Source: Methanobrevibacter millerae
GTDB taxonomy: Archaea > Methanobacteriota > Methanobacteria > Methanobacteriales > Methanobacteriaceae
Reading direction: 5' to 3'
DNA: 64,000 bases
NCBI RefSeq assembly: GCF_001477655.1
Contig: NZ_CP011266.1
Span: 1,658,001 to 1,722,000, forward strand
Shown piece by piece: positions 8,691 through 41,700 of this stretch. The position numbers were made by a program, and so were the translations under genes. Under the pieces are notes generated by a model. It was not told where the DNA came from and ran no database searches. It saw only the letters and a program-made list of their open reading frames with translations. Positions within the stretch are counted from its first letter, which is position 1. The number at the start of each line of letters is the position of its first letter.

Positions 8691-10450
8691 CATTCCTAGA
8701 AACTTAAGGATTTAACTTATTTTTAACTATGTTTTCAATATTGAAAACATCTAATTTTTATTTATTTTAATTAAATCAATCATTATTTATTTTAATACTT
8801 GTTTAATTACTTTTAATTTACTTATATCTTATTTTAATAATTATTAATAGTTTATTTTAAATATTATTAGTCATATATAATTATATATGTAATTAAAGTT
8901 TTTTGATTATGAATTTAGTAGATTGGAGGATTATTTTATGTATTCTTTTGATAGGTTTATCAAAAATTTTTTTCGATTTTTTGAGTGTTTTATATTAAAA
9001 AGATATATTACTGAAGATAATCGATTTATTAGGGATAGAAAAATGACTCAAAAAGAATATACTGCATTTATTCTTTCCCAAAGGAGCTGTACTAGTTATA
9101 TTGAAACTATTAGATTTTTTACTAGGTGGTTGAAGAAAGATTTTGAAACGATTTCTAGCCAGGGAATTGGAAAACAGAGAATGTTTATTGACCCTAAAGT
9201 TTTTATTGACATGTATGAATGTTTTATTGATGAATTATATAATAAATTTCTGGGATTTTCAAAATTTAAAGGATATATTGTTAGTGCTTGTGATGGAAGT
9301 ATTGTTGATCTTCCAAATGTTACTTTAACGCGTGAAGAATTTCCTGTTGGTGATGAAAACTTGTTAAAAGAAAAAAGAATTCGTGCAAGAGTTTCATGTG
9401 TATTAGATGTGCATTCCAAACATATTTTAACTGTAAAAATAGTTGAAACAATAGTAAATGAAATTGATTTAGCAATAGAACATTTAAATAACTTAAAACA
9501 AAGATTTGACATCACAAAATTAATTACAATTTATGACCGAGGTTATCCATCAATCGAATTAATGACTAAAAACATTGATTTGAACTCAAAATTTTTAATA
9601 AGACTACCAAAAAACGTATTTGCACATCAAATTAAACAAATGAAAACCAATGATGAAATAATACAAATCAACATGACAAACAATAGATTAAACAATTTTA
9701 ACGATGAAAATTTAAAAGAAAAAGCAAGAAAAATGGGACGACTAGAAATAAGAATAGCAATAATAGATATTGGAAATAAAGAACTAGAAATACTAGCAAC
9801 AAATTTAACACCCGAAGAATTCTCAACAGAAGATTTAAAAGAATTATATGCAAAAAGATGGACAGTAGAAACAGGATTCGATAGACTAAAAAATTTAATA
9901 GAAATCGAAGATTTCAGCGGAATACGAAGACCAATAATCGAACAAGATTTTTACGCACACATATTCATTTAGAACCTAGCAATAACCATAAAAAACCATG
10001 CAGAAAACAATATAACAAGAACACCAAGAAATAAAGATAAAAAAATAATTTATCAGTCGAATTTCGCAAAAATAACAGGAAATATCTATTTATTCTTCTT
10101 TGACATACTATTTGAATCGAGAACAAAAAGAGAAGAAATAATCGATTTTATAATAAAAGAAGCATCTAAAGAACTAACACAATACGAAGAACATCAATAT
10201 GATGAAAAAGAGCGAAAAACCCCCGGATGTTAATAATAAACATCCAGGAAACAAGAAAAAAACACACTAATCCAAAATTAAACACACACAAAATTAGTGA
10301 GTTTTCACATCTTGTTTAATTTTTTGTTCTCAAATAATATAAAAAACTTACGAAAAATCAATTATCTATACAAAAATAATATAACAATGTTATTAAAAAC
10401 CAATTATGATGAAAAATTTCATCCAAAAATATATTAAGTTTCTAGGAATG
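8691..10450 (+). mobile_element. IS4-family insertion sequence, copy 1 (decayed transposase)
   Basis: About 1,760 bp bounded by inverted repeats CATTCCTAGAAACTTA (start at 8691) and its complement ending at 10450. A nearly identical element lies at 52642-54399, and a 3' fragment at about 61508-61825. No matching target duplication is seen in the flanks (AAAGAT / GTATGT), so the flanks may have been rearranged. Confidence 0.88.
8938..10270 (+). pseudogene. IS4-family transposase, stopped by a nonsense codon
   Basis: Starts at ATG 8938 after a GGAGG site. It carries the DDE elements ACDGSIVDLP and TIYDRGYPS, and the IS4 signature Y-x2-R-x3-E-x6-K (YAKRWTVETGFDRLK). Compared with the intact copy at 52889, a TAT codon has become TAG at 9970-9972, ending the protein after the YREK motif. 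A further frame change near 10220 (run of C) would corrupt the tail. Probably inactive, but it could be mobilised in trans by the intact copy because both ends are present. Confidence 0.85.
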
Positions 10451-10555
10451 GTATGTTATGACAAGGGTTATATACTATAATTAAAATATTAATTAATATA
10501 CACAAATATTTTTTAAAAATATTAGAAGCACATATTTTTTAAAGGAGGTAATTAA

Positions 10556-10699
10556 ATGGCAAAAGAGATTTTAGCAACACCTACATTGCATGGAAATGCC
10601 ACTAAAGCATTTTTAGATGATATGATGCGTCCAGATAATGAAAAAGAGATTGAAATTAAAGAAAGAATTAAAAATGGAAATCATATTAAATTTCTTTAA
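10556..10699 (+). CDS. Small protein, 47 aa, convergent with the GNAT gene (possible antitoxin)
   Basis: Strong ribosome binding site AAAGGAGGT 7 nt before the ATG. The product begins MAKEILATPTLHGNATKAFL and ends ERIKNGNHIKFL; it is highly charged, with a predicted amphipathic helix. Its style (ATPTL.G..AK.FL) resembles short methanogen proteins found beside toxin-like genes; this is recollection, not a search. Its stop is 7 nt from the stop of the TacT-like GNAT gene on the opposite strand. TATA-like TTATATAC lies near 10470. Too short to classify, but the strong RBS argues it is translated. Confidence 0.6.
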   Translation: MAKEILATPTLHGNATKAFLDDMMRPDNEKEIEIKERIKNGNHIKFL

Positions 10700-10706
10700 A
10701 TTATTT

Positions 10707-11243
10707 TTATATTCTTTTTAAATCTTTATATAATGTGATAGTAGTTTTTTGATTTCTTTCTGCAGTTCTTTTTAATTTTTCTGGTCGTTCTATTTTTATA
10801 TGTTGAAATGCATTATCATAATAAAATTTTCTTACTTTACAATATGCATCAACTGTAATAAATTTAACTCCAATTTTTAAAGATATATTTTTTATTTCAG
10901 AACATATGTTGTCTAATATTTTAGTTCCTATACCTTTTTTTTGATAATCTTCATGTATGGCTAATCTTCCAATTTTTATAGCAGGAAAACTTTTATATGA
11001 GCATTCATATTCTTTTGGAATATCTTTTATGTTTATACTATCTGCAAGTAAACTAAAAAATCCAATTATTTTATTCTCATGTATTAAAAGATAAGTTGTA
11101 TTTATATTGTCTTCCTGCTGGTTTAATGCATCATCTTTTAAAAAATTATCCATATCATTTAGGCCACAGTGAAAACTAGATAATTCATGTTCTTTAGTTA
11201 ATTTAATAATATTATAATCGATTTGCTCAATATCATTAGTCAT
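10707..11243 (-). CDS. GNAT acetyltransferase, TacT-like
   Basis: 178 aa. The N-terminal pattern FHCGLNDMDNFLKDDALNQQ, then TTYLLIHENKIIGFFSLLADSI, is characteristic of the toxin-type GNATs (TacT/AtaT relatives) that acetylate aminoacyl-tRNA. The acetyl-CoA binding loop is KIGRLAIHEDYQKKGIGTKIL (Q/R-x-x-G-x-G/A type), and a Tyr-containing strand (KFYYDNAFQ) follows. Full family length, no defects. Unlike standard TacAT operons there is no DUF1778 antitoxin upstream on the same strand; the only neighbour is the 47-aa gene, tail to tail. It could instead be an ordinary GNAT acetylating a small molecule. Confidence 0.72.
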   Translation of the reverse strand: MTNDIEQIDYNIIKLTKEHELSSFHCGLNDMDNFLKDDALNQQEDNINTTYLLIHENKIIGFFSLLADSINIKDIPKEYECSYKSFPAIKIGRLAIHEDYQKKGIGTKILDNICSEIKNISLKIGVKFITVDAYCKVRKFYYDNAFQHIKIERPEKLKRTAERNQKTTITLYKDLKRI

Positions 11244-14250: not shown

Positions 14251-14842
14251 GAATATCACCTTTTTTTAGGTATATCTAATGGGAGTCGCAAGTAGTATTG
14301 TTTAAATATGATAAACAAGAAAAATAGAAAGTGAAGTTACTGTTTTACTTAAGGTTATTCATGCTTGTAATTAACTTTGTATTCTTGTAATTTCTTTCGT
14401 CTTTTTCTAGTAATAGGCCACTACAATGTCCTACTAAAGTAATGGCCTATTTTTAAGACATATTTTTTTAACTAATGTTATCACCATTGATATTTTGTCA
14501 TTCTACAGTCATAGTCATAGGCACTTTTTAAAGCACCATCATTGACACAATATTAAGATTACACAAAGTGTGTAAAATCTTTTAGCCAATAGTTCAAGAA
14601 TTGGCCATATTAACATTTAGTATTTTAGATAATACTGGTATATAAACATTTTTATTAACTTTTTTAGGATATATTTTTGGTATTTTCTTCTAATTTTTAG
14701 TATTTCTCATTATTTTTAATAGAAAATAGGTTCTAAAAAAAGGTATTTTTTAAAATTTATAGTTAAATTCAATACTTATTTTCAGTACTTTTGATGTAAT
14801 TTTTAGAAAAGTATTATATTGACTTTATCCAAATGTATATTC
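14251..14842. promoter_or_regulatory. Intergenic region with several hairpins and promoter of the defence operon
   Basis: No gene. It contains a 9-bp stem AATAGGCCA / TGGCCTATT followed by T residues (14412-14454), a second dyad AGATTACACA / TGTGTAAAATCT (about 14561-14583), and a third GCCAAT / ATTGGC (about 14584-14605). AT-rich repeats of the word TTTTTAGTATTT follow. A TATTATATT box at 14810-14818 lies about 25-30 nt before the ATG at 14843, giving a leaderless transcript. Confidence 0.5.
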
Positions 14843-16003
14843 ATGGTAGAAATTATATCTCTTGAAGATGTTTACACTGCAATGTGTTCTAGTAAGCCAA
14901 CATTATATAAAGCAGTTGCAGGTTTAATATTCTCATCAACTATGACTCCATCAACAATAGCAGAATTAACGCTAAATGACTTTCTAGTTGCATGCGATGA
15001 ATATTTTGATGAAGATGAAGAAAAGTCACTAGTAAACCTCCTTAAGAAAAATCCTTGGAAAATTGTTCCCAACTGGAAATTAAAATCAAAAAACATCTTT
15101 ACATTCAACACACCTGAAACTACATTTTATTTGTTTTTATATATAAAAGAAAAAAGAATGAAAGATTTAAATAATTTGGGGAATCCTTTATTTAAAAGTG
15201 GTAAAAATAATTTTTTAACATCAAGTAAAATCTCATCCTATGTGACAGAGTTCAATGCAGTTCTTAATTTATTCAATGAGGGTTATGGCAATAAATTCAA
15301 GTCAAAAAATCTAATTGCAACATTTGAAGAAATATATGATAAACAGATGTATATTGGAATAAAAAACAAAAATAATTTGATTAAGCTATTTGAAGGAAGA
15401 CTGGCGAATAATAGTAAGTTTTACCGATATGCAGTTAAAAACCCTCATAAAATTAAAGAATATTATAATATGTTAGTGCCATATTTAACTTCAAGATCAT
15501 ATAATCTTGATAGATTCCATAGAAGCGGTATGGATGATAAAAAAAAGATTTCTTTAATTGTTAAAGATTTTTATAATGCTGAATTAAAAGATGATTTGAA
15601 TTTGGATTATACTCAAGGACAGTTGTTGTGTAAGTTTGCAGTAGGTTTGTCAAAATATGTGCCTTTTTCTAATGATGAATTATATTTAAATAAATTATTT
15701 AAAAAGGCAATTATTAAGTTAAAAGTCTATAATTATGATTTTATGGATGGGGGAGGAATTTTAATGTATTATGTTAATAAAAATTCTAATCCTGAAGTTT
15801 ATGCTAATAAATTGGAGGAAGATAGTTATAAATTAGGAGCTTATGATATAATTAATGTTAGTAGGGATGAGTTGAATAAACTTTTTATTAATTATGTTAT
15901 TGAAAATAATTATTATAATAAATTTATGAGGGATTTTGAAGCAGAAATGATAATAAAAAAAGTTTGTTATAATTTAATTGATTATGAAGATAGAATTATA
16001 TGA
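14843..16003 (+). CDS. Tyrosine-recombinase-like protein of unknown function, 386 aa
   Basis: Residues about 15-110 follow the plan of methanogen phage-integrase catalytic domains: LYKAVAGLIFSSTMTPSTIAELTLNDFL, a DEDEEKSLVNLLKKNPWKIVPNW segment, then FNTPETTFYLFLYIKE. The usual catalytic Arg before SE(L) is replaced (TPSTIAEL), and I see no clear H-x-x-R or catalytic Tyr, so it is probably not an active recombinase. The C-terminal 230 residues are unknown. The open frame begins at a TTG 24 nt upstream, but the ATG at 14843 fits the TATA spacing. It lies 22 nt ahead of the STAND NTPase gene and is probably cotranscribed, so it may be a regulator or accessory part of that system. Confidence 0.5.
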   Translation: MVEIISLEDVYTAMCSSKPTLYKAVAGLIFSSTMTPSTIAELTLNDFLVACDEYFDEDEEKSLVNLLKKNPWKIVPNWKLKSKNIFTFNTPETTFYLFLYIKEKRMKDLNNLGNPLFKSGKNNFLTSSKISSYVTEFNAVLNLFNEGYGNKFKSKNLIATFEEIYDKQMYIGIKNKNNLIKLFEGRLANNSKFYRYAVKNPHKIKEYYNMLVPYLTSRSYNLDRFHRSGMDDKKKISLIVKDFYNAELKDDLNLDYTQGQLLCKFAVGLSKYVPFSNDELYLNKLFKKAIIKLKVYNYDFMDGGGILMYYVNKNSNPEVYANKLEEDSYKLGAYDIINVSRDELNKLFINYVIENNYYNKFMRDFEAEMIIKKVCYNLIDYEDRII

Positions 16004-16025
16004 AAATTTTATCAAAGGTGAAAAA

Positions 16026-18113
16026 ATGGTTGATTGGACTCATTTCAATAAAAATAATGGAGGTAGTGATTCTGACGCGTTTGAAGAAATGATTTATCTT
16101 TTATTTTGCACAAAATATGATAAAAAAGAAGGAATTTTTGGTTATTTTAATCAAAGAGGCATTGAAAAAGAACCGATTAAAGTAAATGATAAATGCATAG
16201 GGTTTCAAGCAAAGTTTTATACAACAAAATTATCAGATAACACCCCAGATTTAATAAAATCAATTAAATTTGCAAAAAGGGATTATCCCAATATTTCTAA
16301 AATTGAATTTTACATAAATAAAGAATATGGTCAAGGTCGTAAAAAAGGCACTAATAAACCTCAAGGACAAATCAAAGTAGAAGAATTTGCTGAGAAAAAT
16401 GATATTGAAATTGCATGGTATTTAAAGAGCAAGTTGGATGTGATTTTATTCCAACCGGAATATCAAAGAATTCATGAAAAATTTTTTGGCAAAGAAAAAT
16501 CGTTTTTGGATTATATTGAAGAGCTAAATATTTATTCAAATTCTTTATTTGAAAATATTAAGGATGATTTAACACTTAAGGATAATCCCATTAAACTTAA
16601 TAGAGATTCATATATAAATGAAATTGATGAAAAAGTATCTGAAAATGATTGTTTCTTGATTAATGGAAATCCCGGATGTGGTAAATCTGCTTTGGCTAAA
16701 GAGTTCTTAAAACAAAAAGATTGTCCTATTTTAATGTTTAAGCCTGATGATTTTGATGTAGAAAATATTCAATTCTTTTTTGATAGATTTAATTTGTCTT
16801 TAAATGAATTTAGGGAGTTTTTTAAGGATTTTGATGAAAAATTTATTTTAATAGATTCTGCTGAGTTAATCGGCACTTTAAAAAACCAAAGGGTTATTGA
16901 TGAATTTTTCAAATTGATGATTCAGGATTCCTGGAAAATTATTTTCACTTCAAGATTAAATTATTCCAATAGTCTAAAATTAAATCTGAAAGTAAACCTT
17001 AACTTTAAAGTTGATGAGATAACTGTAAAAGAATTATCCTTAAATGAGTTAGTGTCCTTATTTGAAGAAAATAAATTAAAACTGCCACAAAATATTAAAT
17101 TTAAAAAATCACTTCAAAACTTATTTTATTTAAACGCATATTTATCCAATATCGATAATATTGATTTGGAGGATGAATCCGAAATTAAAGATGTATTATG
17201 GGATTTGATAATTAAAAAATCACATTATCAATATGGCAATAATCCTGATAAAAGAGAGGAATGTTTTCTAAGATTTATTGAGATGAAATCTAGCAATCCC
17301 TACTTTAAATTTGAGAGTGACTATTTTTGTCAGGAAATATTAAATGATTTTCAAAGAGATGGAATTATTAGCAATATTTCTGACAAATATTATTTCTGCC
17401 ATGACATATATGAAGATTGGGGTCTTGAAAAGATAATTAATAAAAATTTCAATGAATCTAGCGATTATGAAATATTTTTTAAAAAGATTAATGATTCTGT
17501 TAAATTTAAAGTGGCTTATAGAAAATGGTTGCATTATCAATTAAATAATAATTATGGAAATGTTGATGAATTTTTAGACTTTGTTATTGTTGATGATCAA
17601 TGTAGGGAATCATGGGTTGATGAAACTCTCTTTGCTGTTGTCGTTTCAAACAAATTTGAATTATTTTTGAAAAAATTTAAATTTCAAATAATGAGTGATG
17701 AGTTTATTCTAAAAAGGATATTGTATTGGCTGCAAACAATTTTTAGAAAGGAAAGTGATTCTCAATTTTCCAAGTTGGTAAAAGAACATGCAAATAAAAT
17801 TATTTACAAGCCTTTTGGAGTTTATTGGGAAAAATTTATTTCATTTTTATATGACAATTTGGAAAAATGGAACAAATCTCAAATGGAAATAATTGTGCCT
17901 TACTTGTTAGAATGGAATCGGCATTATTCTGAAGGAGATGCGACTAGAAACTCTTCATTAATTGGATTAAAGTTTTATGAAAATCTGGAAGCCAATGATT
18001 ATTATGGTGTTGATAAACTTAAAGATTCTTGTGTTTCCATTATCCTTTTAGGTTCAAAGGAAATAAAAAATGAACTTGAAGAAATTTTAAATAAGACATT
18101 GTTAAATCAGTGA
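16026..18113 (+). CDS. Avs-like STAND NTPase, N-terminal part: PD-(D/E)XK nuclease plus NTPase
   Basis: 695 aa to an in-frame TGA. Start ATG 16026 follows GGTGA by 4 nt; the open frame begins earlier. Residues 1-160 resemble the restriction-type nuclease domain of antiviral STAND proteins: SDSDAFEEMIYLLFC, and IGFQAKFYTT, where QAK is the Q-x-K variant of the E-x-K metal site. A P-loop NTPase follows near residue 220: Walker A NGNPGCGKSALAKEF, Walker B EKFILIDSAEL, and the STAND-type sensor IIFTSRL. A winged-helix-like and helical region completes it. Such proteins sense a viral protein with the C-terminal solenoid, oligomerise and cut DNA (family knowledge). The continuing frame at 18138-20696 is probably the sensor part of the same protein. 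Confidence 0.75.
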   Translation: MVDWTHFNKNNGGSDSDAFEEMIYLLFCTKYDKKEGIFGYFNQRGIEKEPIKVNDKCIGFQAKFYTTKLSDNTPDLIKSIKFAKRDYPNISKIEFYINKEYGQGRKKGTNKPQGQIKVEEFAEKNDIEIAWYLKSKLDVILFQPEYQRIHEKFFGKEKSFLDYIEELNIYSNSLFENIKDDLTLKDNPIKLNRDSYINEIDEKVSENDCFLINGNPGCGKSALAKEFLKQKDCPILMFKPDDFDVENIQFFFDRFNLSLNEFREFFKDFDEKFILIDSAELIGTLKNQRVIDEFFKLMIQDSWKIIFTSRLNYSNSLKLNLKVNLNFKVDEITVKELSLNELVSLFEENKLKLPQNIKFKKSLQNLFYLNAYLSNIDNIDLEDESEIKDVLWDLIIKKSHYQYGNNPDKREECFLRFIEMKSSNPYFKFESDYFCQEILNDFQRDGIISNISDKYYFCHDIYEDWGLEKIINKNFNESSDYEIFFKKINDSVKFKVAYRKWLHYQLNNNYGNVDEFLDFVIVDDQCRESWVDETLFAVVVSNKFELFLKKFKFQIMSDEFILKRILYWLQTIFRKESDSQFSKLVKEHANKIIYKPFGVYWEKFISFLYDNLEKWNKSQMEIIVPYLLEWNRHYSEGDATRNSSLIGLKFYENLEANDYYGVDKLKDSCVSIILLGSKEIKNELEEILNKTLLNQ

Positions 18114-18137
18114 AAAAAAAGTCAAGATCCTTATTAT

Positions 18138-20696
18138 ATGCTATCTATTCGGATATTGGGTATGAACAATTATGGGAACATATGTGAAATTTTTCCTGAT
18201 CAGATATTAAAGTTAGCGGATTTATTTTGGATTGATGATAATAAATCAGACTATGATTTTGATAGATATGAAAGAAGTTTTTTAATAGATAATAATATTA
18301 CTTGGAAATATTCTTATGAAAGTCCTTTAGAAACTCCTATTCTATACTTATTAACATGTCATCCTGAAAAAACTGTAGATTTCATAATAAATTTTGTAAA
18401 TAAATCTATTGAATATCATGTTGAAAACTATCCAACTGATAATGATGATTTCTATCGCATTGATGAAATTGTGCTGGAAATTGATGGAATAAAAAATAAA
18501 CAGTATATTTCAAACTCACTGTGGCAATGTTATAGGGGATCCGGTTCTCCGGTAATTCCTACGTTGCTAAAAATTATGCATATGGCATTGGAGAAGTTTT
18601 TACTTGATGAATGTGAAAATGATAATTTTGATGATGTTGAAAAAATATTGAGGAAAATTTTATGTAAATCAAAGTCCGCTTCATTAACGGCGGTTGTAAC
18701 TAGTTTAGTGTTGGCGTATCCTGATAATTTTTTTGAGATTGCATTAATCTTATTTAAAACTCTTGATTTATTTAAGTATGATTATGCTCGGTGGATTAAT
18801 GAATCCGAAGCTAAATTATTATATGAAATTGCACCTATGAATAAACAATTTTTGGTTCAAGAAAGATTGGATACCTGTGACCAAAAATTTAGAAAAATGA
18901 ATTTGGAAAGTTTGATAATTAATTATCAATTTTTTAGAAATGAAAACATTTCCGAAGAAATTTCAAAATATAGGGTGGAATCTATACAGGAATTAATTGA
19001 TAATCATTTAGAAGAGTTAGATTCTAAAAATTTGGCTAAAGAAAAACTTTCAAATTACCGAATGTTATTATCTAAAATCGATAGAAGAAATCTCAAACCA
19101 AATGTGAAAGAGACTGATGGTGAAATTCAGATATCTTTTGAAAACGTTAACATAGACGATGATTTAAAAGAAGACTCAGAAAATTTTTCCAAGGAATTTA
19201 ATGATATTTTTAAGTATGTTGATTTAAGTAACTGGGCAGATGCAAAAATAAATGACAAACCTATTCCTGACAATCTTTTAAAATATGAAAATGATGTTAG
19301 TATTATTTTGGATGAGTTAAATCAATTTCTTACGGATTTAAATGAAGATAAATTAAAATTGAACATTTATGTGGATAATCTTCCATTAAGTGTTTCATTT
19401 TGCTTGTTAAAATTTTATTCCGATTCATTAAAAGATGAGGATAAAGAATTATGCAAAGATATAATCTTGGAACTTATTTATTTTTCATTGCTTGATGAAT
19501 ATTATTTTTACCAAATTTCTCATAGATTGGATATTGGGACCCTTGCTATAGTTTACTTGTTTGATTTGTTTCCGAATGATAGGTTAGTGTTCATGGTAAC
19601 TTTATTGTTGATCTTATTCAATGATGAAAAAATCGATGCGACTAATTATTTCTCATCGTTTTCAATTATCGCATTGAGAAAATTATATGTTCAACATCCA
19701 AATTGTGTTAACAATATTTTATGCTGCTATTCCAAGTTTAAACCGGACTTCGATGATATTTATATTAAAATTATAAATGAAAACAGGAATTCAAATATTC
19801 CTAATCTTTTTGCATTTGCAGTAAAAAACTTTTTAGAAAAATATGAGGATGAATTGGGAAATATTGTAGACTATAATGATTTTGAATTTGAAAATTTAAA
19901 TTTAATTTCAGCTAATGTGATTTTTCAAACTATTCCTGAAAATTCAAGTGATAAATTACACGTGGATTTCTTCAAGTTTGTTTTCCAACTTTTTGCAAAT
20001 GATTTATTTGATAGGGAATCTCAGCTAAAGGGTTCCAAATATTATTCTGTTAGATATACTTTTTTAATGCGATTTTGCAACATAGCTCTAATGAATAAAT
20101 CAAATTTGAAAGAATATATTTCGTCCTTTTTAGATCACTTTAGAATAAATGATGGTGCTTATGAATTAATCAATTCATTTGTCAATGTTGTTAATAATGA
20201 AGTTCTTGTAGAATTTTGGGAGATTTGGTGGTTGTTTTTAGAAAAAATATTGGAAAATCATGAAACTGTTGGGAAACATTATTTGGAGAAAATATTGGAG
20301 AAATTTGTCATAAATTATCAACTAGAAAATGATTTTGATATGAGTGAGGATATTGTTGAGATGGAAAAACAATTTTACAGAAGAGTTTGCAAAGAACTTG
20401 GAGAGTATGAATTCATCTTGAATTCGGTTTCTAAAATAGTAATTAAAAACAAATTCCTTTCATCTGGTTTAACTTGGATAAAAATCATATTGAATGAGGG
20501 CGATTTTAGTAATGTGGAAAAAGGAACTATTTATAATGTGGAGTATTTTGTTAAAAAATATGTTAGTGTGAATTCCCAAAAGATAATGGAGGATATTAAA
20601 ATTCAGAAGGATCTTCTGTTAATTTTAGATTTTTTAATTAAAAACGGTTCCAATGATGCATTTAGAATTAATGAATGGTTAGTATCATTAAAATAG
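18138..20696 (+). CDS. Avs-like STAND NTPase, C-terminal helical sensor part, in frame after a TGA
   Basis: 852 aa, almost entirely helical with a solenoid look (repeated hydrophobic-charged helices). It is in the same frame as the preceding ORF; only TGA at 18111-18113 separates them, and the eight codons between TGA and this ATG are open. The ATG lacks a GGTGA or GGAGG site, unlike its upstream neighbour, which argues that this was one protein of about 1,550 residues, the usual size of this class. Conserved-looking words: PLETPILYLLTCHPEKTVDF, SLWQCYRGSGSPVIPTLLK. It could be translated separately, making a two-subunit system, by readthrough, or not at all. Confidence 0.65.
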   Translation: MLSIRILGMNNYGNICEIFPDQILKLADLFWIDDNKSDYDFDRYERSFLIDNNITWKYSYESPLETPILYLLTCHPEKTVDFIINFVNKSIEYHVENYPTDNDDFYRIDEIVLEIDGIKNKQYISNSLWQCYRGSGSPVIPTLLKIMHMALEKFLLDECENDNFDDVEKILRKILCKSKSASLTAVVTSLVLAYPDNFFEIALILFKTLDLFKYDYARWINESEAKLLYEIAPMNKQFLVQERLDTCDQKFRKMNLESLIINYQFFRNENISEEISKYRVESIQELIDNHLEELDSKNLAKEKLSNYRMLLSKIDRRNLKPNVKETDGEIQISFENVNIDDDLKEDSENFSKEFNDIFKYVDLSNWADAKINDKPIPDNLLKYENDVSIILDELNQFLTDLNEDKLKLNIYVDNLPLSVSFCLLKFYSDSLKDEDKELCKDIILELIYFSLLDEYYFYQISHRLDIGTLAIVYLFDLFPNDRLVFMVTLLLILFNDEKIDATNYFSSFSIIALRKLYVQHPNCVNNILCCYSKFKPDFDDIYIKIINENRNSNIPNLFAFAVKNFLEKYEDELGNIVDYNDFEFENLNLISANVIFQTIPENSSDKLHVDFFKFVFQLFANDLFDRESQLKGSKYYSVRYTFLMRFCNIALMNKSNLKEYISSFLDHFRINDGAYELINSFVNVVNNEVLVEFWEIWWLFLEKILENHETVGKHYLEKILEKFVINYQLENDFDMSEDIVEMEKQFYRRVCKELGEYEFILNSVSKIVIKNKFLSSGLTWIKIILNEGDFSNVEKGTIYNVEYFVKKYVSVNSQKIMEDIKIQKDLLLILDFLIKNGSNDAFRINEWLVSLK

Positions 20697-21137
20697 TAAC
20701 AAATTTTGATTTATTATTCTATTCATAATATTTTTAAATCCAAGTATTTTTTGTGGAATTGAAAATTTATGGAATTTCATCTACTCGAATCTTTTCTTTT
20801 GAGTATGGAAATGATTTCATTAAATTCGAAATTCAACTTGATTTAAGTGAACTTTTCATGTTAACTATTAGTTTAGCTGACTCTACCTTCAAGCATTATG
20901 GCGTCGGATTTATTTCACTTTTTCAGTTTTTGTGGGGCACTCCATATCTCATGAGGTGAAAATTATAATGGTATTTCATATATGAATCTTAACAAATTTA
21001 ATGTGTTTGACTTTTAAATGTTTTAAACTTGTAATTAATCAATTCACAAAATTTAAGGGGCAAAACCCTAAATTATTTCTTAATATCCTCACAGTTGTCT
21101 TTTTTATCTGAACTCATACGATCGACTGTTACGCGTG
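20697..21137. other. Intergenic; no gene supported
   Basis: A 68-codon plus-strand frame (20753-20959, starting GTG) has no ribosome binding site and no recognisable motif. A weak dyad (ATTTAAGGG, loop, CCCTAAAT) lies near 21050-21073. Nothing else seen. Confidence 0.4.
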
Positions 21138-23467: not shown

Positions 23468-25177
23468 TTAGTCATAATTAAAATCCATTAAATAAAACTC
23501 AAATTCAGATTTTTTTAATAGATTGAATGTGTTATTTGTAATTATTTTAGTTGGTACCGTTGGATTTTCTTTAAAATCCTTAATAAAACCTGCAATATAA
23601 ACGATGTTGCGTTCATGGAGAATGTGTCTGAATTCATTTTTTGTTATTGGTATTTTATTTTTATTTTTATTTTTTAAACTGTCATAATATGAATTTATTT
23701 TTTCGTCAGTGGTTAATAATTTGTTTTTCAAATAATAATATGACCCTTCGATTTGTCCATACACATCTCTACATCCTCCATAATCAAATTTATTTTTAAG
23801 ACAAATCAGAAATAGTTTATTCTCAGTTTCATCATAAATCATTAAATCAGTTATTTCAAGATAATCCGGCTTTAATGTATGTCCCACAATGATGTCATCA
23901 TCCTTTTCAAAGGAATTATTGTAATTATTTTCGTTTTTCTTTGTAATTTTATCCCAATTTGTTAATAATTGAGGATATTTCTTTTGTAAAAATTCTGAAA
24001 TGCGTCTGGAATTATTGTAAATCTCTTGAAATTTATTGGTAATTAGTTCGTTAAATGTATAACTTAGATAAAACCATTTTCCATCTAGTAAAAAGTAATC
24101 TTTTCGTGTTTTTGAATCATATAATCTGCAATCTAGGCAATTCAATAGGGCACTGTTTAATGTTTCTTCTCCATTTTGAGAGGTGTTGATTATTGTATTT
24201 TTAAATAATGCATTTAAGGATTCTTTATTAAATAATTCATTTTCATTTAAATAATTTTCAATAGTTTTCCACTGAATGGGGTCATCATCTTCTAAATTTA
24301 AATTAAGTTCATCACATCTAATCAAATAGAAGTCATTATTTAAATAGTTAACAATTTGTTCTCCAACAATTTCGATATCATAATTGCTGTTGGTGTCATC
24401 TAAAATAGAAGAGATTAATAGTTCCAACAATTCACTTGGTTTGTGATTTTCAGCACCAGACACCTCTATAAATGAATTCAACTCAAAATTTGGACGATTT
24501 TCATTAACAGAATCCAACCAATCAAAAACATACTCCAAATTTTCAAAGGTCAATGATTTTTCAACAAAAACAAAATCCTTATTTGTAAATCTGATGTGTT
24601 CCAAATCATCATTGAAATGTTCATTGTCAATCAAACCCAATTCTGTTAAAATTTTAGCATCCAAAACCAATCCTAATTCTTTATAAAGGTTTGTAAAATC
24701 AGATTCAACATTCAAGCTAGTTGCCCTTCTGTTGACTCGGTGATTGTATATCTGATTGTCATATAAACGGTTTTCGATGATGTTTCTCACAACACTATCG
24801 GTATTGTTGATTAATTTTGGGATTAGATTCAGACCATAATTTTTTTCATAATATCCTTTAAGGTGATGGTATCCCTGTCCTCCGGATATTGCATAGACTG
24901 TCTTATTTGAAGATTCCTTTAAAAGTACGTAGGACATATTATTGTTTTTTTGATATTTCTTTTTAAGAGATTCAGTCATTAGTTCATGGATGCATTTAAT
25001 CCATGATGGGTCGCTTTCATTGCTGTAGATGATTCCTTTGTAACTATTTTTATTAATAGTGTCAAAATTGATTTCTTTTTCTCTCAATTTATTTTTTATA
25101 TCATCTATTATGCCATCAATACTATACTCTTCTTTTATCATGTAGATTTTAAATTTATTTGTTGGTTTTTTTGACAT
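23468..25177 (-). CDS. TIGR04141/DUF6119-like protein, third gene of the Kiwa-like operon
   Basis: 569 aa. Family marks of the sporadically distributed TIGR04141 (DUF6119) proteins: AISGGQGYHHLKGYYEKNYG (the AIS.G.G.....YE..FGL motif) at about residue 95-115, RRATSLNVESDFTNLYKELG near residue 150, and the C-terminal LEITDLMIYDETENKLFLI...K...GGCRDVYGQIEGSYYYLKN, which matches the family's EicDll...lihvK...s.l..Q...S pattern. The biochemical role is unknown; members occur in defence islands and the C-terminal part may be nuclease-like (inference). It starts 33 nt after the kwaB-like gene on the same strand, so probably cotranscribed. Intact. Confidence 0.68.
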   Translation of the reverse strand: MSKKPTNKFKIYMIKEEYSIDGIIDDIKNKLREKEINFDTINKNSYKGIIYSNESDPSWIKCIHELMTESLKKKYQKNNNMSYVLLKESSNKTVYAISGGQGYHHLKGYYEKNYGLNLIPKLINNTDSVVRNIIENRLYDNQIYNHRVNRRATSLNVESDFTNLYKELGLVLDAKILTELGLIDNEHFNDDLEHIRFTNKDFVFVEKSLTFENLEYVFDWLDSVNENRPNFELNSFIEVSGAENHKPSELLELLISSILDDTNSNYDIEIVGEQIVNYLNNDFYLIRCDELNLNLEDDDPIQWKTIENYLNENELFNKESLNALFKNTIINTSQNGEETLNSALLNCLDCRLYDSKTRKDYFLLDGKWFYLSYTFNELITNKFQEIYNNSRRISEFLQKKYPQLLTNWDKITKKNENNYNNSFEKDDDIIVGHTLKPDYLEITDLMIYDETENKLFLICLKNKFDYGGCRDVYGQIEGSYYYLKNKLLTTDEKINSYYDSLKNKNKNKIPITKNEFRHILHERNIVYIAGFIKDFKENPTVPTKIITNNTFNLLKKSEFEFYLMDFNYD

Positions 25178-25210: not shown

Positions 25211-26149
25211 TTATAAATCTATTTTATTTGAAGTTTTAAATGGTTTTTGAGAGAGTATTCCTTCAAGATAATCATCATTTAATAAATTCAGAATCTTTTT
25301 GACATCTTCAAATTCATCTAAATGAAGTTCTCCATTTGATCTGTTAAACTTGATATTTTCACTTTTTTCTTCAATTTTTCGTATATTCTCTTCAGTTAAA
25401 TAGTTGAAATTCTCATTATTCAGTATCATATATAATTTTTTCAAGCTTCTCTGATTGTTTTCAATTTTTGAAAATAACTTTTTAACATCTAATTTTACTG
25501 ATTTGTCCTGCCTACTTTCAAATTTATCTAATTTATCTTTGATCTCTCTTCTAAATTTTTCTTCAAAACCGAATATTTGCTCAAAATAATAATTATGAAA
25601 TATGTACATTATGGGATTATCATCATCTAATGAACAAATACAATCAATTTTATTTTCTAAAGGTAATAATGGTTTATCAAATTTTTTAATGTTTTCTTCA
25701 AGTATCAAATTCATTTTTTCATTTTCCAAAAATGTTTTATTACGTATTTTTTGGAATGATAATATTCTATTTTCACCATTGTCCATTAAAATAGCAATAA
25801 TCCATAAGCTATGTCGTTTATCTAATTTTGTTTCAGAGTATATAATTGGATCTCTTTCGATATCATCTATAAATTTAGATAATCTGCTTAATTCACCACA
25901 TTCAATTTTTTGAACAATATATTTATCATTAATAAGCGGATTATAATCAATTGGATCTTCTGTTTCTTCATTAGTAATATAATCGTGAATTTGACTATGT
26001 ATTGCAGTTTTAAACTCTGAAAGCATTTCTAGATCAGTAATTTTTGTTGAAAATATTTCATATTCAATCTTACCTTTTGCTTTTGAAAAAAGATATAAAT
26101 TCACATGTTTTGGTTTTATATTATATACTTTTTCTAAAATATTATTCAT
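25211..26149 (-). CDS. kwaB: KwaB-like protein (DUF4868), Kiwa defence
   Basis: About 312 aa. The DUF4868 core is visible: LWIIAILMDNGENRILSFQK, KIDCICSLDDDNPIMYIFHN, YYFEQIFGFEEKFRREIKD (the ..FE.iF.feE.f motif), then a helical C-terminal third. In Kiwa, KwaB is the DNA-binding effector that assembles with the membrane protein KwaA at phage entry sites (published system; not shown in archaea here). The open frame begins with GTG at 26158; ATG 26149 is preferred since GTGATG precedes it, leaving an 8-nt overlap with the kwaA-like gene and implying coupled translation. Intact. Confidence 0.74.
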   Translation of the reverse strand: MNNILEKVYNIKPKHVNLYLFSKAKGKIEYEIFSTKITDLEMLSEFKTAIHSQIHDYITNEETEDPIDYNPLINDKYIVQKIECGELSRLSKFIDDIERDPIIYSETKLDKRHSLWIIAILMDNGENRILSFQKIRNKTFLENEKMNLILEENIKKFDKPLLPLENKIDCICSLDDDNPIMYIFHNYYFEQIFGFEEKFRREIKDKLDKFESRQDKSVKLDVKKLFSKIENNQRSLKKLYMILNNENFNYLTEENIRKIEEKSENIKFNRSNGELHLDEFEDVKKILNLLNDDYLEGILSQKPFKTSNKIDL

Positions 26150-26729
26150 TATCATCACTTACCATATATACCTTTGAACTAAGTTGCATGACTCCAATTT
26201 TTTTACCAAGTCTTCTGTTAACATCAATTTTTGATATTAATAATAAATTAGTATTTTTTGAGTAAATTTTATAAAAATTATATCCTAAAAATATAAATAA
26301 CGGATTTATATATAAAATCTCTGAATTAATATAAATCATGAAAATAATTATAAATATTACAATGCAGCATAAAAATTCTTCAGTACTACTAATTGAAACG
26401 AATGAAAAAAAGTAGGGTACTAAATAAGTTAATATTATGTCATTTTTCTCATCAATTCTATTCACAACAAAAAACTTTTCAGTTTCTGATTTTGAATTGT
26501 TGATAATCTTTTTGAAATTATAGATTAATAGGATTATAACTATTAAAATTATAATTGGAATAATTGGAAGTGGAATGGTTAACTTTAAATAAGGCATATT
26601 AATATTATAAATAAATTTTAAAAAATATTTAATGCCCATAATTATAAATAACGGAATATATGCACTTAAAAACAATATAAACTTTGCTAAATCAATTTTT
26701 TTTAATATTGTTATGCGATTTAAAGCCAT
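26142..26729 (-). CDS. kwaA: KwaA-like membrane protein, Kiwa defence
   Basis: 195 aa with four hydrophobic segments: IDLAKFILFLSAYIPLFIIM, LTIPLPIIPIIILIVIILLI, a paired segment around DIILTYLVPYFFSFVSI, and EEFLCCIVIFIIIFMIYIN. KwaA proteins share the order SYxPLF... / DiltYl.pY..Sf / ..YxNPl...lGYnfYki, all seen here (INPLFIFLGYNFYKIYSKN). Predicted inner partner of KwaB in the cytoplasmic membrane, detecting phage or virus entry. First gene of the operon; an AAAAATATAA box about 15-20 nt upstream suggests a leaderless transcript. Divergence from bacterial KwaA cannot be measured here. Confidence 0.7.
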   Translation of the reverse strand: MALNRITILKKIDLAKFILFLSAYIPLFIIMGIKYFLKFIYNINMPYLKLTIPLPIIPIIILIVIILLIYNFKKIINNSKSETEKFFVVNRIDEKNDIILTYLVPYFFSFVSISSTEEFLCCIVIFIIIFMIYINSEILYINPLFIFLGYNFYKIYSKNTNLLLISKIDVNRRLGKKIGVMQLSSKVYMVSDDNE

Positions 26730-31371: not shown

Positions 31372-33148
31372 GGGAGTGTAAAAAATTTAACTGATAGATT
31401 TTCAGTTTTCTCCCAAAACATTTCTTTTTGTCCAATTTAAGTTGTTTAATCAAATTTGTCTTGTGCTCCTTTGTATGTTCTGAAGATTCTTTTTATTTTT
31501 CCAGGGAAAGTTACTCTGAATAATAATTCTGCTAAATTGTTTGTACTTGGAATTTTTCTGTTTTTTGTGTGATTCAAGGTTATTTCAAGTTTTTTAGAAA
31601 GTTTTCTCATGAAATCTTGGATTATTTCAGGCATTTCATCGAATTTTTCATTTAATTTGTTGAATCTATTCATAGCAGTCTTAATAGTTTTGGATTTAAA
31701 TATTTTTGATATTTTTTCCTTGTATTCTAGGTATTCTTTGACTTCATTCTTGATTTGTTTTAATTTGAATTTATTTCTGTCATTTTCCATTTTAAGCTTT
31801 TTTCGTTGGTTTTGATTTTTTATTAATTTTTTCTCTGTTTTCTTTGGTCTTCCTATTTTTGGTGGCATTTTGCTTTTTAATTGTTCTATTTTTTCTGTAG
31901 TTTTTTCTATTTGCTCTTTGAGTGATTTTATGATTCTGTTTCGTTTATTTATGTGTTTTTGTAAAGGTAGCATTAATCCTTGCATTATGTGGAATGTGCA
32001 GGTGTGGTGTTTTGCTCCAATTTCTTCAATTATTTCTGGATAAGCACCATAGCCATCGGTAATTATTGTGTTTAGTTTTAATCCTTTAAATGATTCTTTA
32101 AAGTATTTTTTAATGGTTTCTTTGGTGAATTCTTCTCTCCTTATGATTTGATCATTGATTATTAATCGAGTATGAGAATCAATAATTGTCATTCACACGT
32201 AAATTTCTTTATTAATCTTTATAAACTCTCCATCATAATTATAAAAACCACTTGGTTTAATATTTAACTTTTTAATTAATTTATTGACTCTTTTTTCTTC
32301 TTTATCTAAGTATTGGTCTATTAAATCAGATTGAGAAATGTATGATGTTTGTCTACTCATTTTGACATCATAAATTAAATTTATATAATTTGCTTTGTTT
32401 TCATAAGATGAATATGTTATTGTGCTGAAATCTAAGCTTAATTTCTTTATTTCTAGTGTGTAATTGCAGTATTTACTGATAAATGTTTCTAATGAGGTTG
32501 TTTTGTAATATTTATGGTGTTTGCAGGAGTATTTTTGTTTATATATTGTTTTGTTCTTGTTTAAAATAAACTTCTGCAATCCATTTTTATTTAATGGTTG
32601 TTCACAAATTGGGCAAATTGGATTTAACTCATAATAAATTATTTTATATGATTTTTGAAGTATTTCCTCTGCAATGGAAATGAAATTCGGAGAAACAGCA
32701 GTGTTCAAATACAAATTCTCACCTTCACAAAAAAGGAAAGAATTAAATAAATTGTCATCCATAAAATTAATTACGGGTTTGTTTTTTTGTTGCATATATA
32801 ATAATAAGCCCGTATTCCTATTTAAACCTATCTAAACTATTATTTTTAGGATTAAAAACTTATTAGATTATATTAAAGTACTAAATTTGATATTCATCAG
32901 ATGATACAAATTTAACAAGGGATTATGTCCTTTTTATTAAATTAACAATATCTCCTTTAAAATTGAGATCAAGTTTCAAAACCTTCTTTTAAAATTAATG
33001 CAAAACTAAGCAAATGCTATGAAAATTATTATTTGTTTTTTATTTTGAAAAATTAGTTCAATTAGTTTTAAATAAATGAAATAAATATAGTAACAATTTA
33101 TATACGATGGATAAGAGTTACACTATCAGTTAAATTTTTTACACTCCC
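31372..33148 (-). mobile_element. Zinc-ribbon DDE insertion sequence with 7-bp target duplication
   Basis: Inverted repeats GGGAGTGTAAAAAATTTAAC.. at 31372 and the complement ending at 33148 (about 26 bp). Flanking direct repeats CTTATTA at 31365-31371 and 33149-33155. Related to the element at 48553-50350. Family not named with certainty (unclassified/ISNCY-like). Confidence 0.85.
31446..32795 (-). pseudogene. Zinc-ribbon DDE transposase interrupted by one in-frame TGA
   Basis: The N-terminal 200 codons carry a zinc ribbon (NPICPICEQPL, CKHHKYYKTT) and a helix-turn-helix. TGA at 32193-32195 stops the frame; the next codon starts the 248-aa remainder with no frameshift: DDE parts TIIDSHTRLI, TIITDGYGAYPEI, HTCTFHIMQ, and a lysine-rich coiled coil. 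The homologous position in the copy at 48910 is Arg (IYVRLALID), so CGA or AGA became TGA. Both ends of the element are intact. Confidence 0.8.
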
Positions 33149-37194: not shown

Positions 37195-38715
37195 TTATCT
37201 TCGGCTAAATTGATTTTTACTATGGGTTTCAAAATATTCAGTTTTACTAACATCATAAGGACTATAATTGAATTTAATCAAATTCCACCTCCTAATTGGT
37301 ATACTGGACATTTTAAATAATTGGTTTTTATCATTAGGACCCACAAGAGCCCATTTACCAATAAAATTTCCTTCATCATCATATTGTGGAAAATATTTCT
37401 TAATTATCCATTTGATACCTTTATTAGGATGCAGTCTTTTGAGAAATTTGAATAATTTTATCCAAATATAATGGTCAATTTTGCTATATGTTTCTTTGGC
37501 TACTGAAGTTCTCCAAAAATAACCAATACCCTTAATTACAGGGTTTAACTTTTCGATAAGATAATCAACATTGTGCCCATGACACTTTTTGAATATATCC
37601 TTAATACGCTCTTTTGCTTTCTTAATACTTTCTTTTGAAGGTTTAATTAAGCATTTATAACGATTTTGTTTCTTATATAATCTACAATTGAAACCTAGAA
37701 AGTTAAATCCCTTATGGGTGTGTGTTATTCTGGTTTTGTCTTCTGCCAATTCCAGACCTCTTTCGTCTAGATATGGTTCCAATAGGTTTCTTACCTCTTC
37801 TATTTCTTCTTTTGTTTTAGAGAATATGACAAAATCATCAGCATACTTAACAACACGATAATTACCATTTGTTCGATAAGTTATACGCTTTTCACCGTTT
37901 TGATTATAATTCTCCTCTTTATAAGATATATTGAGGCATTCTTCAAGTCCCGTTAGTGCAATATTTGCTAATAAAGGCGACAGCAATCCACCTTGAGGAG
38001 TACCCTTCTCTGTTTCATTAAAAACATTGTTATCTAAATAACCTGCCTTTAATATTCTTTCTGCTACTCCTTTTAAGGGGAAACCTCTTAATTGTTTTAA
38101 GATAAAATCATGAGATAAATTATCAAAACAACCTTTAAAGTCACTTTCAAATACCCAACACCATTTATTGTGACTTATATTTTTGTGTATGCGTTCAATT
38201 GCATCGAATACACCTCTTTTTGGTCTGAAACCGTATGATATTGGTTCAAATCTTGCTTCCATTTGTGGCTCGAGAGTAATTCTAATTACTTCCTGATAAA
38301 TTCTATCAACAATATTAGGAATACTTAATGGTCTTTCTTTACCATTTTTCTTCGGGATATAAATTCTACGAGTAGGACTTGGATTATACTTATAAATATC
38401 CTTTTTAATTAGTCTGTCAACTAATTCTCCTTTTTCTTTGCTAGTTTTAGCAATGAACCCGTCAGGACCAGGAGTATTTCTTCCTTTATTAATTTCAGTA
38501 ACTCTACGAACAGCCAATAACAAAACTGCCTTACTATTTGCTAATAATCTTTGAATATTTCTCACTTTTCGTTTATCATTTTTAACCTCAGCTCCATATA
38601 TCCGCTTTTGCTGTTTATCTACATACCTTTCAATTCTATTCCAATTAATAGAATCCCAGTCGGTAGTGTCTGATGATACGGACACACAAATATTATTATT
38701 TGCGGAATTTCTCAA
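37195..38715 (-). CDS. ltrA: Group II intron reverse transcriptase/maturase of intron A, intact
   Basis: 506 aa from TTG 38715, chosen because AGGAGGGTGA at 38721-38730 lies 5 nt upstream and no ATG fits. RT core: GPDGFIAK, YIPKKNGKERPLSIPN, SYGFRPKRGVFDA, ESDFKGCFDNLSHD (metal site), GTPQGGLLSPLLANIAL, and KYADDFVIFS (catalytic YADD). The maturase domain X/GIIM follows (IKPSKESIKKAKERIKDIFK to IRRWNLIKFNYSPYD). No HNH endonuclease is present. It is the only intact RT in the stack and probably serves splicing and mobility of intron A and perhaps of the related intron C. Ends 10 nt before domain V. Confidence 0.92.
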   Translation of the reverse strand: MRNSANNNICVSVSSDTTDWDSINWNRIERYVDKQQKRIYGAEVKNDKRKVRNIQRLLANSKAVLLLAVRRVTEINKGRNTPGPDGFIAKTSKEKGELVDRLIKKDIYKYNPSPTRRIYIPKKNGKERPLSIPNIVDRIYQEVIRITLEPQMEARFEPISYGFRPKRGVFDAIERIHKNISHNKWCWVFESDFKGCFDNLSHDFILKQLRGFPLKGVAERILKAGYLDNNVFNETEKGTPQGGLLSPLLANIALTGLEECLNISYKEENYNQNGEKRITYRTNGNYRVVKYADDFVIFSKTKEEIEEVRNLLEPYLDERGLELAEDKTRITHTHKGFNFLGFNCRLYKKQNRYKCLIKPSKESIKKAKERIKDIFKKCHGHNVDYLIEKLNPVIKGIGYFWRTSVAKETYSKIDHYIWIKLFKFLKRLHPNKGIKWIIKKYFPQYDDEGNFIGKWALVGPNDKNQLFKMSSIPIRRWNLIKFNYSPYDVSKTEYFETHSKNQFSRR

Positions 38716-41700
38716 GTTAATCACCCTCCTTTTGATAATAATGCAAAAGAACATTAAAATTTTCGTCTACATTGAAGTTGTCTACCTTCCGAAAGTGGGC
38801 AGTGTTTCCACTCCATACCTAAAAGTTATTTTTTTTTAGGCTTTTACTGGTATCCGTCATGGTTTATATGCTCATTATTATTCCCATTGTCTTTCGACTA
38901 TTGACGGCATTATGCTTTCTTCGGAATCCTTTACCTGCTACACATATGTATATCATTCACAATCAACCTACCCCAGATTTTTTTTAGGGAGTGTATCAGG
39001 CTTACCATGTTGATCTGTTATCAGAAACGCCAAGAGGACGCTCCAACCTCTACACCGGCAAATATTATGGGTTGTGACTAGATAAATATTTTCCCAGTAT
39101 TTATCTCCTAATTTGCGATACAGTAATAGTTACAATAATATTGTAAACCTTGTACTCCACTTACTGTTGGACTTAACGATGCTTACAGTTGTTCACACGA
39201 TGTTGAGCGTTTCAAGGCTTCCCCTAGCCTGTAAATTTCAGAGTACTTGAAATTTACTTGGACATTCTATCATGCAACCTCGTAACCAATCACTTAGTTA
39301 AGAGTTTCAAGGGGGGAAATTCCATCACAACTAGAATTGAAATCTAAATATTATTAGTTTCACTATTAGAATGAGCAACAGACCCATCATGTCGCACGAG
39401 AAAGTAATCCTCCTTGAGGAGTTCCTTCAAGAGTATTATGAAATACACCATTATCAACATATCCAGCTTCCAAAAATCTTTTAACAAGATTATAATTAGG
39501 AAATCCTTTGATTTGTTTAAGTATGAAATCATGATTAAGTGTATCAAAGCAAGAGCGAAAATCTCCTTCGTACACCCAACACCATTTATTCCATTTGATA
39601 TTATAGTGTATTCTTCTCGCAGCATCGTGTGTACTTCTTTTGGGACGAAATCCATAACTTGTAGGTTCAAATTTCGCTTCCCATTCGGGTTCTAATGCCA
39701 TACGAATTATCTCCTGATAAATACGGTCTTTAATAGTGGGAATACCCAAAGACCTTAATTTACCGTTCTTTTTAGGAATGTATTTTCGATACGCAGGTTT
39801 AGGTTTATGTAATTTCATTTTCTCCTTTTTGAGCATGTCAAATAGTTTACCACGAGCACGGTCACTTGTAGCTTTAAAACCATCAATGCCAGGAGTTGAT
39901 TTTCCTTTATTTTCTTTAGTAACTCTATTAATTGCTTTTAACAAAGCGGAATTACTTCTCATCAATTGTCTTTGTAAATCACGGACTTTTTTCTTATCAT
40001 TATCTTTACTAGCACGATATATTCGTTTTTGTAAACTATCTACATGCCGATTGACTTTGTACCATTTAATACTTTTCCAATCGGTTGCATCTGGTTTCGC
40101 GGGCTCACAAATGTTATCATTTGGAGTTAATCTCATTATTGGTCACCATCCTTTAATAGTTTTATACAAATACGCATTATATACACGTTGCATACCATTC
40201 AAAAGTCAGCCAGGTTATCCCTGCCACCCACAATGGAGTGATATCCATTCACAGTTACATATCTTCATTTCTTCCTGCTACCTTTCGGTTAATAACGGCA
40301 TTTGCTTTCTTTGAAATCCTCTACCCCCTAAGGAATTAAACATCATTCACAATCCGTTTACCCGACCTTAATCGGGACCTCGTGGGGTTTACCAAGTTTA
40401 TCTCCAATCAGATACGAATAAGGGACGATTCGGACTATACACCGACAGACATATGAGTTGTGCAATATAAATATGACTTCAATATTTATTTCCAGTCTGC
40501 AAGACAATAGTAGTCATCCTAACTAATAGGAAAACATCGTATTCCACCTATTGTTCGAAGTTACGACGCTTACATCCGTTCACCATAAAGTTTAATCGTT
40601 CTTATCCTTCCCCTAGCCTTCAGAATTCGAATACTAAATTCTGATTAGACATACAATCATGCAACCTCCTAATCAATTACTCAATTAAGAGTTTCAAGGG
40701 GGGGAAATCCCAACACAACAGGGATTGAAAATCCATTTTAATGAATTTTCACTGCTTAAAATGAAGAAAGAGATACTTCTTGTCGCACAAAATCTCCTTC
40801 AAAGACCCAACACCATTTATTGCCTTTTATATTAAGGAAAATGCGTTCTATAGCATCATATACTCCTCTTTTGGCCTAAAGCCATAAGATGTAGGTTCAA
40901 ACCGTGCTTCCATTTGTGGTTCAAGGATAATTCTAATTATCTCTTGATAAATTCTGTCAGTAATTGAAGGAATACTTAACGGTCTCTTTTTGCCGTTTTT
41001 CTTCGGTATATAAATCCTACGTGTAGGACTAGGAATATAATTATAAATATTCTTCTTAGACAATCTATCTACTAATTCACCCTTTTCCTTGCTGGTTTTA
41101 GCAAGAAATCCATCAGGACCAGGTGTATTTCGCCCTTTATTAATTTCAGTAACTCTACGAACCGCTAATAACAAAACGGCCCTACTGTTTGTTAACATTC
41201 TTTGAATATTTCTTACTTTTCGTTTATCTTTATTAACCTCAGCTTCATATATCCGCTTTTGCTGTTTATCTACATACTTTTCGACACTATACCAATTAAT
41301 AGTGTCCCAGTCAGTAATGTCAGATGATACGGACACACAAATATTATTTGTGGTATTTCTCAAGTTAATCACCTTCCTTTGGATAATAATGCAAAAGAAC
41401 ATTTTCTTTCGTCTACATTGAAGTTGTTCACCTTTCGAAAGTAGGCAGTGTTTCCACTCCATACCTAACTTGCATTTATTAGGTTTTACAGGTATCCGTC
41501 ATGGTTTATATGCTCATTATTATTCCCATTGTCTTTCGACATCGACGGCATTTGCTTTCTTCGAAATCCTCTACCTGCTACACATATGTATCTCATTCAC
41601 AATCAACCTACCCCCTATTGGGGGGGGAGTGTATCAGGCTTACCATGTTGATCTGTCATCAGATACGCCAAGAGGACGCTCCAACCTTTACACCGGCAAA

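What the first reader, a model, noticed from the sequence alone, without database searches (positions are those of the whole stretch)
16026..20696. Avs-like nuclease-STAND protein split by a single in-frame TGA
The 695-codon and 852-codon frames are in register, separated only by TGA and eight open codons, and the second lacks a ribosome binding site. Intact homologues are expected as one protein of about 1,550 aa with nuclease, NTPase and helical sensor. Options: recent nonsense mutation, readthrough, or evolution to a two-subunit effector/sensor system.
Basis: partly seen in the sequence, partly recalled or inferred. Interest (0 to 1): 0.75.

Follow-up and report, generated by a model that had tools for sequence, protein, structure and literature searches.

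The report
Archaeal Avs4 defence gene, recently broken
A rumen methane-producing archaeon carries a gene for a known type of virus-sensing defence protein (Avs4) that has almost certainly just been broken by one stop codon, so this is an ordinary freshly dead gene rather than a new two-part system.

Summary
At 16026-20696 (+) two in-register frames of 695 and 852 codons are separated by one TGA (18111-18113) and eight sense codons. Together they are one Avs4 (AVAST type 4). Read through, they pass NCBI's Avs4 equivalog cut-off (1517.8 against 1500 bits); each half alone scores about 740. The nearest orthologue (77% identity, same genus) is an uninterrupted 1,556-aa protein with TGG (Trp) at the TGA codon. 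All 61 full-length Avs4 found in the genome collection are single frames, 47 with Trp there; no relative is split at this place. The half behind the stop is as constrained as the half before it and carries no other lesion, so the stop is very young. The ATG of the second frame is CTG in the orthologue. No stop-decoding tRNA or unusual downstream RNA fold was found. Best reading: a recent nonsense mutation that truncates Avs4 inside its helical sensor and probably inactivates it. Readthrough or a two-piece protein is unlikely but needs protein-level data to exclude.

The parts
16014..16025 (+). Ribosome binding site of avs4 (AGGTGA region just before the ATG)
   Evidence: Sequence; duplex with the 16S tail -8.5 kcal/mol
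16026..18113 (+). avs4, 5' part: 695 codons plus TGA; nuclease domain (invariant E47, Q61, K63), STAND NTPase (Walker A about 214-222, Walker B about 274-280), first part of the helical sensor
   Evidence: PADLOC Avs4 4-696; NF041815 1-705; nSTAND3; invariant residues kept
18111..18113 (+). In-frame TGA at codon 696; TGG (Trp) in the nearest orthologue and Trp in 47 of 61 full-length homologues
18114..18137 (+). Eight sense codons KKSQDPYY, part of the conserved motif N-x-W-K-x-x-x-D-P-Y-Y
18138..20696 (+). avs4, 3' part: 852 codons of helical sensor, still open and still constrained; its ATG is CTG in the orthologue
   Evidence: PADLOC Avs4 712-1567; NF041815 721-1578; dN/dS and codon table
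16007..20722 (+). Extent of DNA shared with the orthologue in G101 (83%): the gene and its own ribosome binding site only, flanks unrelated
   Evidence: blastn of window 8001-30000 against L025

Best explanation
This is a single avs4 gene, an AVAST type 4 antiviral STAND nuclease-NTPase-sensor, in M. millerae SM9, in which one substitution turned a conserved Trp codon (TGG, codon 696) into TGA. Translation should end there and give a 695-aa product with nuclease, NTPase and only the first part of the helical sensor. By analogy with characterised Avs proteins (inference) the intact protein binds a virus protein through its C-terminal solenoid, assembles and cuts DNA. The truncated product lacks more than half of the protein, all of it sensor, and is probably inactive. 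The break is so recent that no second lesion has accumulated. Shown here: family, register, codon state in relatives, constraint, absence of split relatives. Inferred: that translation stops, and that the product is inactive.
For: Joined frame passes the Avs4 equivalog cut-off (1517.8 vs 1500), halves do not (740, 746); end-to-end match to 8DGF, E = 1.3e-194. Orthologue L025:10001-14671 is 77% identical, uninterrupted, TGG at the site. Five of five other full-length Avs4 in the phylum are uninterrupted with Trp there. 61 of 61 full-length Avs4 from the genome collection are single frames, 47 with Trp. dN/dS against the orthologue is 0.22 before and 0.19 after the stop. Lineage-specific amino-acid changes, window against orthologue: 45 vs 29 before, 54 vs 50 after the stop. 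No second stop in 860 codons, where neutral decay predicts about 13 per 0.1 substitutions per site; on that assumption the stop is younger than about 2% neutral divergence. Window-lineage N:S 42:42 in the last 365 codons against a neutral 3.2:1. Other Avs4 are broken at unrelated places (L047, L078, L088, L090, L091, L105), as are some plasmid copies and the remnants in G016 and G119: loss is common in this family.
Against: A very young stop and a stop that is read through or bypassed leave the same constraint pattern, so the sequence cannot separate them. Trp is also what near-cognate misreading of UGA would insert. Only one strain is available, and no reads were seen.
Confidence: 0.82

Rival explanations
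1. Sequencing or assembly error: the gene in the living strain is intact and encodes a normal Avs4.
For: 454-only assembly (PMC4987999); the site is next to a run of A; the rest of the gene shows no decay.
Against: 454 errors are mostly homopolymer length errors that shift the frame; keeping the frame would need an undercalled G and an overcalled A together, at 213x coverage. A plain substitution explains the difference from the orthologue.
Confidence: 0.08
2. Readthrough of the UGA (for example by tRNA-Trp) makes some full-length Avs4, perhaps keeping a dangerous nuclease at low dose.
For: The stop sits at a Trp codon, so near-cognate reading would restore the ancestral residue; downstream constraint is intact.
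Against: No relative has the stop. No UCA-anticodon tRNA among the tRNAs typed and no tRNA-Sec over cut-off; tRNA-Trp itself was not recovered. The RNA around the stop folds no better than shuffles (z = +1.12). In archaea readthrough is firmly shown only for selenocysteine and pyrrolysine (PMC8037382).
Confidence: 0.06
3. The gene has become a two-subunit system: an effector-NTPase protein and a separately started sensor protein that reassociate.
For: The break falls in a loop between two helices of the solenoid (residue 217 of the model, between H202-214 and H225-233), where a split could be tolerated; some pairing of the region before ATG 18138 with the 16S tail.
Against: ATG 18138 is CTG in the nearest orthologue; no relative is arranged as two genes here; the break lies inside a continuous solenoid and not at the sensor boundary.
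Confidence: 0.04

Closest known systems
Avs4, AVAST type 4 anti-phage nuclease (NCBIfam NF041815, PADLOC PDLC02169, PDB 8DGF)
   Same: Whole length, domain order, nuclease and Walker residues, conserved Trp position, single gene with its own start
   Different: One TGA inside the sensor; about 30-35% identical to the bacterial examples
Avs4 of Methanobrevibacter G101 (L025:10001-14671)
   Same: 77% identical, same length, same ribosome binding site
   Different: No stop; unrelated flanking genes
Other interrupted avs4 copies (L047, L078, L088, L090, L091, L105; some E. coli plasmids)
   Same: Lesions in an otherwise recognisable gene
   Different: Frameshifts or stops at other positions, some with deletions

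Membership tests
Avs4 (AVAST type 4) | Passes the curated whole-protein cut-off of NF041815 (1500 bits) | tested here: met
   1517.8 bits when the TGA is read as Trp; 740.2 and 745.6 for the halves alone
Avs4 (AVAST type 4) | N-terminal nuclease with conserved acidic and Q-x-K residues | tested here: met
   E20, E47, Q61, K63 invariant in A1 and present in the window; catalytic assignment from general knowledge of Mrr/Cap4-like nucleases
Avs4 (AVAST type 4) | STAND NTPase with Walker A and B | tested here: met
   GNPGCGKSA and FILIDSAE present and aligned to largely invariant columns; nSTAND3 E = 1e-4, below Pfam's gathering score
Avs4 (AVAST type 4) | C-terminal helical sensor in the same polypeptide | tested here: not met
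   Sensor coding sequence present and constrained but most of it behind an in-frame TGA; so a broken member of the family by descent, not a demonstrated functional Avs4
Avs4 (AVAST type 4) | Recognises a phage structural protein (portal) and then degrades DNA | not testable with these tools
   Needs an assay; for Avs1-Avs4 nuclease effectors and terminase/portal recognition see PMC12931631
Programmed stop-codon readthrough gene | Stop codon conserved in relatives and a decoding tRNA or stimulatory element | tested here: not met
   Stop in one sequence only; no decoder found; no unusual fold

The most novel reading that the evidence does not exclude
The TGA is tolerated because Avs4 is still made, either by low-level UGA readthrough as Trp that tunes the dose of a suicidal nuclease, or as two reassociating pieces; this would be natural stop-codon control of an archaeal immune receptor.
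Probability: 0.06. Interest if true: 0.6.

Novelty: new member of a known kind. Interest (0 to 1): 0.15.

Why it matters
It shows Avs4, known mainly from bacteria, spread as a single-gene cassette among rumen methanogens and being lost by recent mutation, as expected for a suicidal defence gene with a cost. It also means that the cultured strain SM9 should not be assumed to have working Avs4 immunity.

Tried and rejected
Single-protein scan of genome contigs: no relatives, solved by using an alignment. Phage records and viral contigs: no Avs4 relative and no match to the junction, so no second strain with or without the stop was found. Genetic-code change rejected: 10 of 40 ORFs of 150 aa or more in the window end in TGA, and in-frame stops in decayed transposases are of all three kinds. 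Two further in-frame TGAs in the window lie in transposases; relatives have Arg at 60301 (YDRGY) and Arg or other residues at 32193, no recurrent TGA. Faster evolution behind the stop was looked for and not found (window vs orthologue N:S in the last 365 codons, Fisher p = 0.15). The first alignment used two loci on the wrong strand and was replaced by A1.

Full report
What is there. The window lies at 1,658,001-1,722,000 of a one-contig genome of 2,543,538 bp, the exact size published for Methanobrevibacter millerae SM9 (CP011266; PMC4987999). The two frames are exactly as described: 16026-18113 (695 codons, TGA), eight sense codons, 18138-20696 (852 codons, TAG), one register.

Identity. Both halves match consecutive parts of one family, Avs4: PADLOC 4-696 and 712-1567 of 1570, NCBIfam NF041815 1-705 and 721-1578 of 1579, and solved Avs4 8DGF over residues 3-1545. 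Only the joined frame passes the curated equivalog cut-off. Nuclease and NTPase residues that are invariant in six archaeal Avs4 are kept.

State of the codon in relatives. The nearest relative, in another species of the genus (G101), is 77% identical, uninterrupted, and reads AAT TGG AAA AAA AGT where the window reads CAG TGA AAA AAA AGT. All five other full-length Avs4 of the phylum have Trp and no stop. Among 77 loci from the genome collection (one genome for each of 84,980 species), 61 are full-length single frames, 47 of them with Trp and the rest with L, A, Q, S, H, R, F or D; Trp is therefore conserved but not indispensable. The 16 other loci are cut by contig ends or broken elsewhere by frameshifts or stops. 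One of them, from a Gracilibacterium, holds three in-frame TGAs, which fits that group's known use of TGA for glycine (general knowledge) and is not a break. None is a two-gene arrangement at codon 696. The pattern search behind one search reports at most 80 loci, so this is a sample and not a census.

Age of the stop. dN/dS against G101 is 0.22 before and 0.19 after the stop. Amino-acid changes on the window lineage, polarised with G011, are 45 before and 54 after, against 29 and 50 on the G101 lineage: no acceleration behind the stop. The last 365 codons of the window lineage have 42 nonsynonymous and 42 synonymous changed codons where neutrality predicts 3.2:1. The 860 codons behind the stop contain no other stop, although neutral drift would give about 13 per 0.1 substitutions per site. 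If the 3' part is no longer translated, the stop is thus younger than roughly 0.02 neutral substitutions per site, against dS of about 0.5-0.7 to G101.

Could it still be made? The second ATG is a CTG in G101 and so is not an old start. Pairing of the preceding bases with the 16S tail is measurable (-7.8 kcal/mol) but misplaced, and it stems from the conserved Asp-Pro codons. None of the tRNAs typed has a UCA anticodon, and no tRNA-Sec reaches its cut-off; tRNA-Trp itself was not recovered. The RNA around the stop is no more stable than shuffles. TGA serves as an ordinary stop for other genes of the window, and in-frame stops in decaying transposases are of all kinds. A model of the region from the G101 protein (mean pLDDT 88) places the site in a loop between two helices of a continuous solenoid: not a domain boundary, but a place where a split would not be absurd.

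Conclusion. The most economical account is one recent nonsense mutation in a normal, horizontally moving avs4 gene. The shared DNA with G101 covers just the gene and its ribosome binding site (16007-20722). The expected product keeps the nuclease and NTPase but lacks most of the sensor and is probably inactive. Readthrough, a two-piece protein and a sequencing error remain possible and need bench data.

Noticed in passing
window 25211-26729 (-): KwaA (26142-26729) and KwaB (25211-26158) of a Kiwa defence system about 5 kb downstream of avs4 (PADLOC E = 3e-20 and 7e-20), followed by a TIGR04141/DUF6119 protein (23468-25177): a defence island.
   Followed up: partly
L026:3553-8773 (+): In a related Methanobrevibacter (G016) a KwaA-like gene without an adjacent KwaB directly precedes a full Avs2 (1,559 aa), with a C-terminal Avs4 remnant (9965-11098) next to it.
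   Followed up: no
window 31446-32795 (-) and 59950-60648 (+): Two transposase genes each interrupted by one in-frame TGA; other copies in the genome have Arg at 60301, and Arg or other residues at 32193. The region is rich in decaying IS elements.
   Followed up: partly
window 37195-41462 (-): One complete and two truncated group II intron type reverse transcriptases.
   Followed up: no
window 14819-16003 (+): 394-codon frame directly upstream of avs4 with no match in Pfam, PADLOC, PHROGs, NCBIfam or PDB; resembles an archaeal tyrosine recombinase by eye only; the DNA is not shared with the G101 locus.
   Followed up: partly
L049:6983-11746 (+): Gracilibacteria Avs4 with three in-frame TGAs in one frame, consistent with genetic code 25: Avs4 also occurs in a recoded lineage.
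   Followed up: partly
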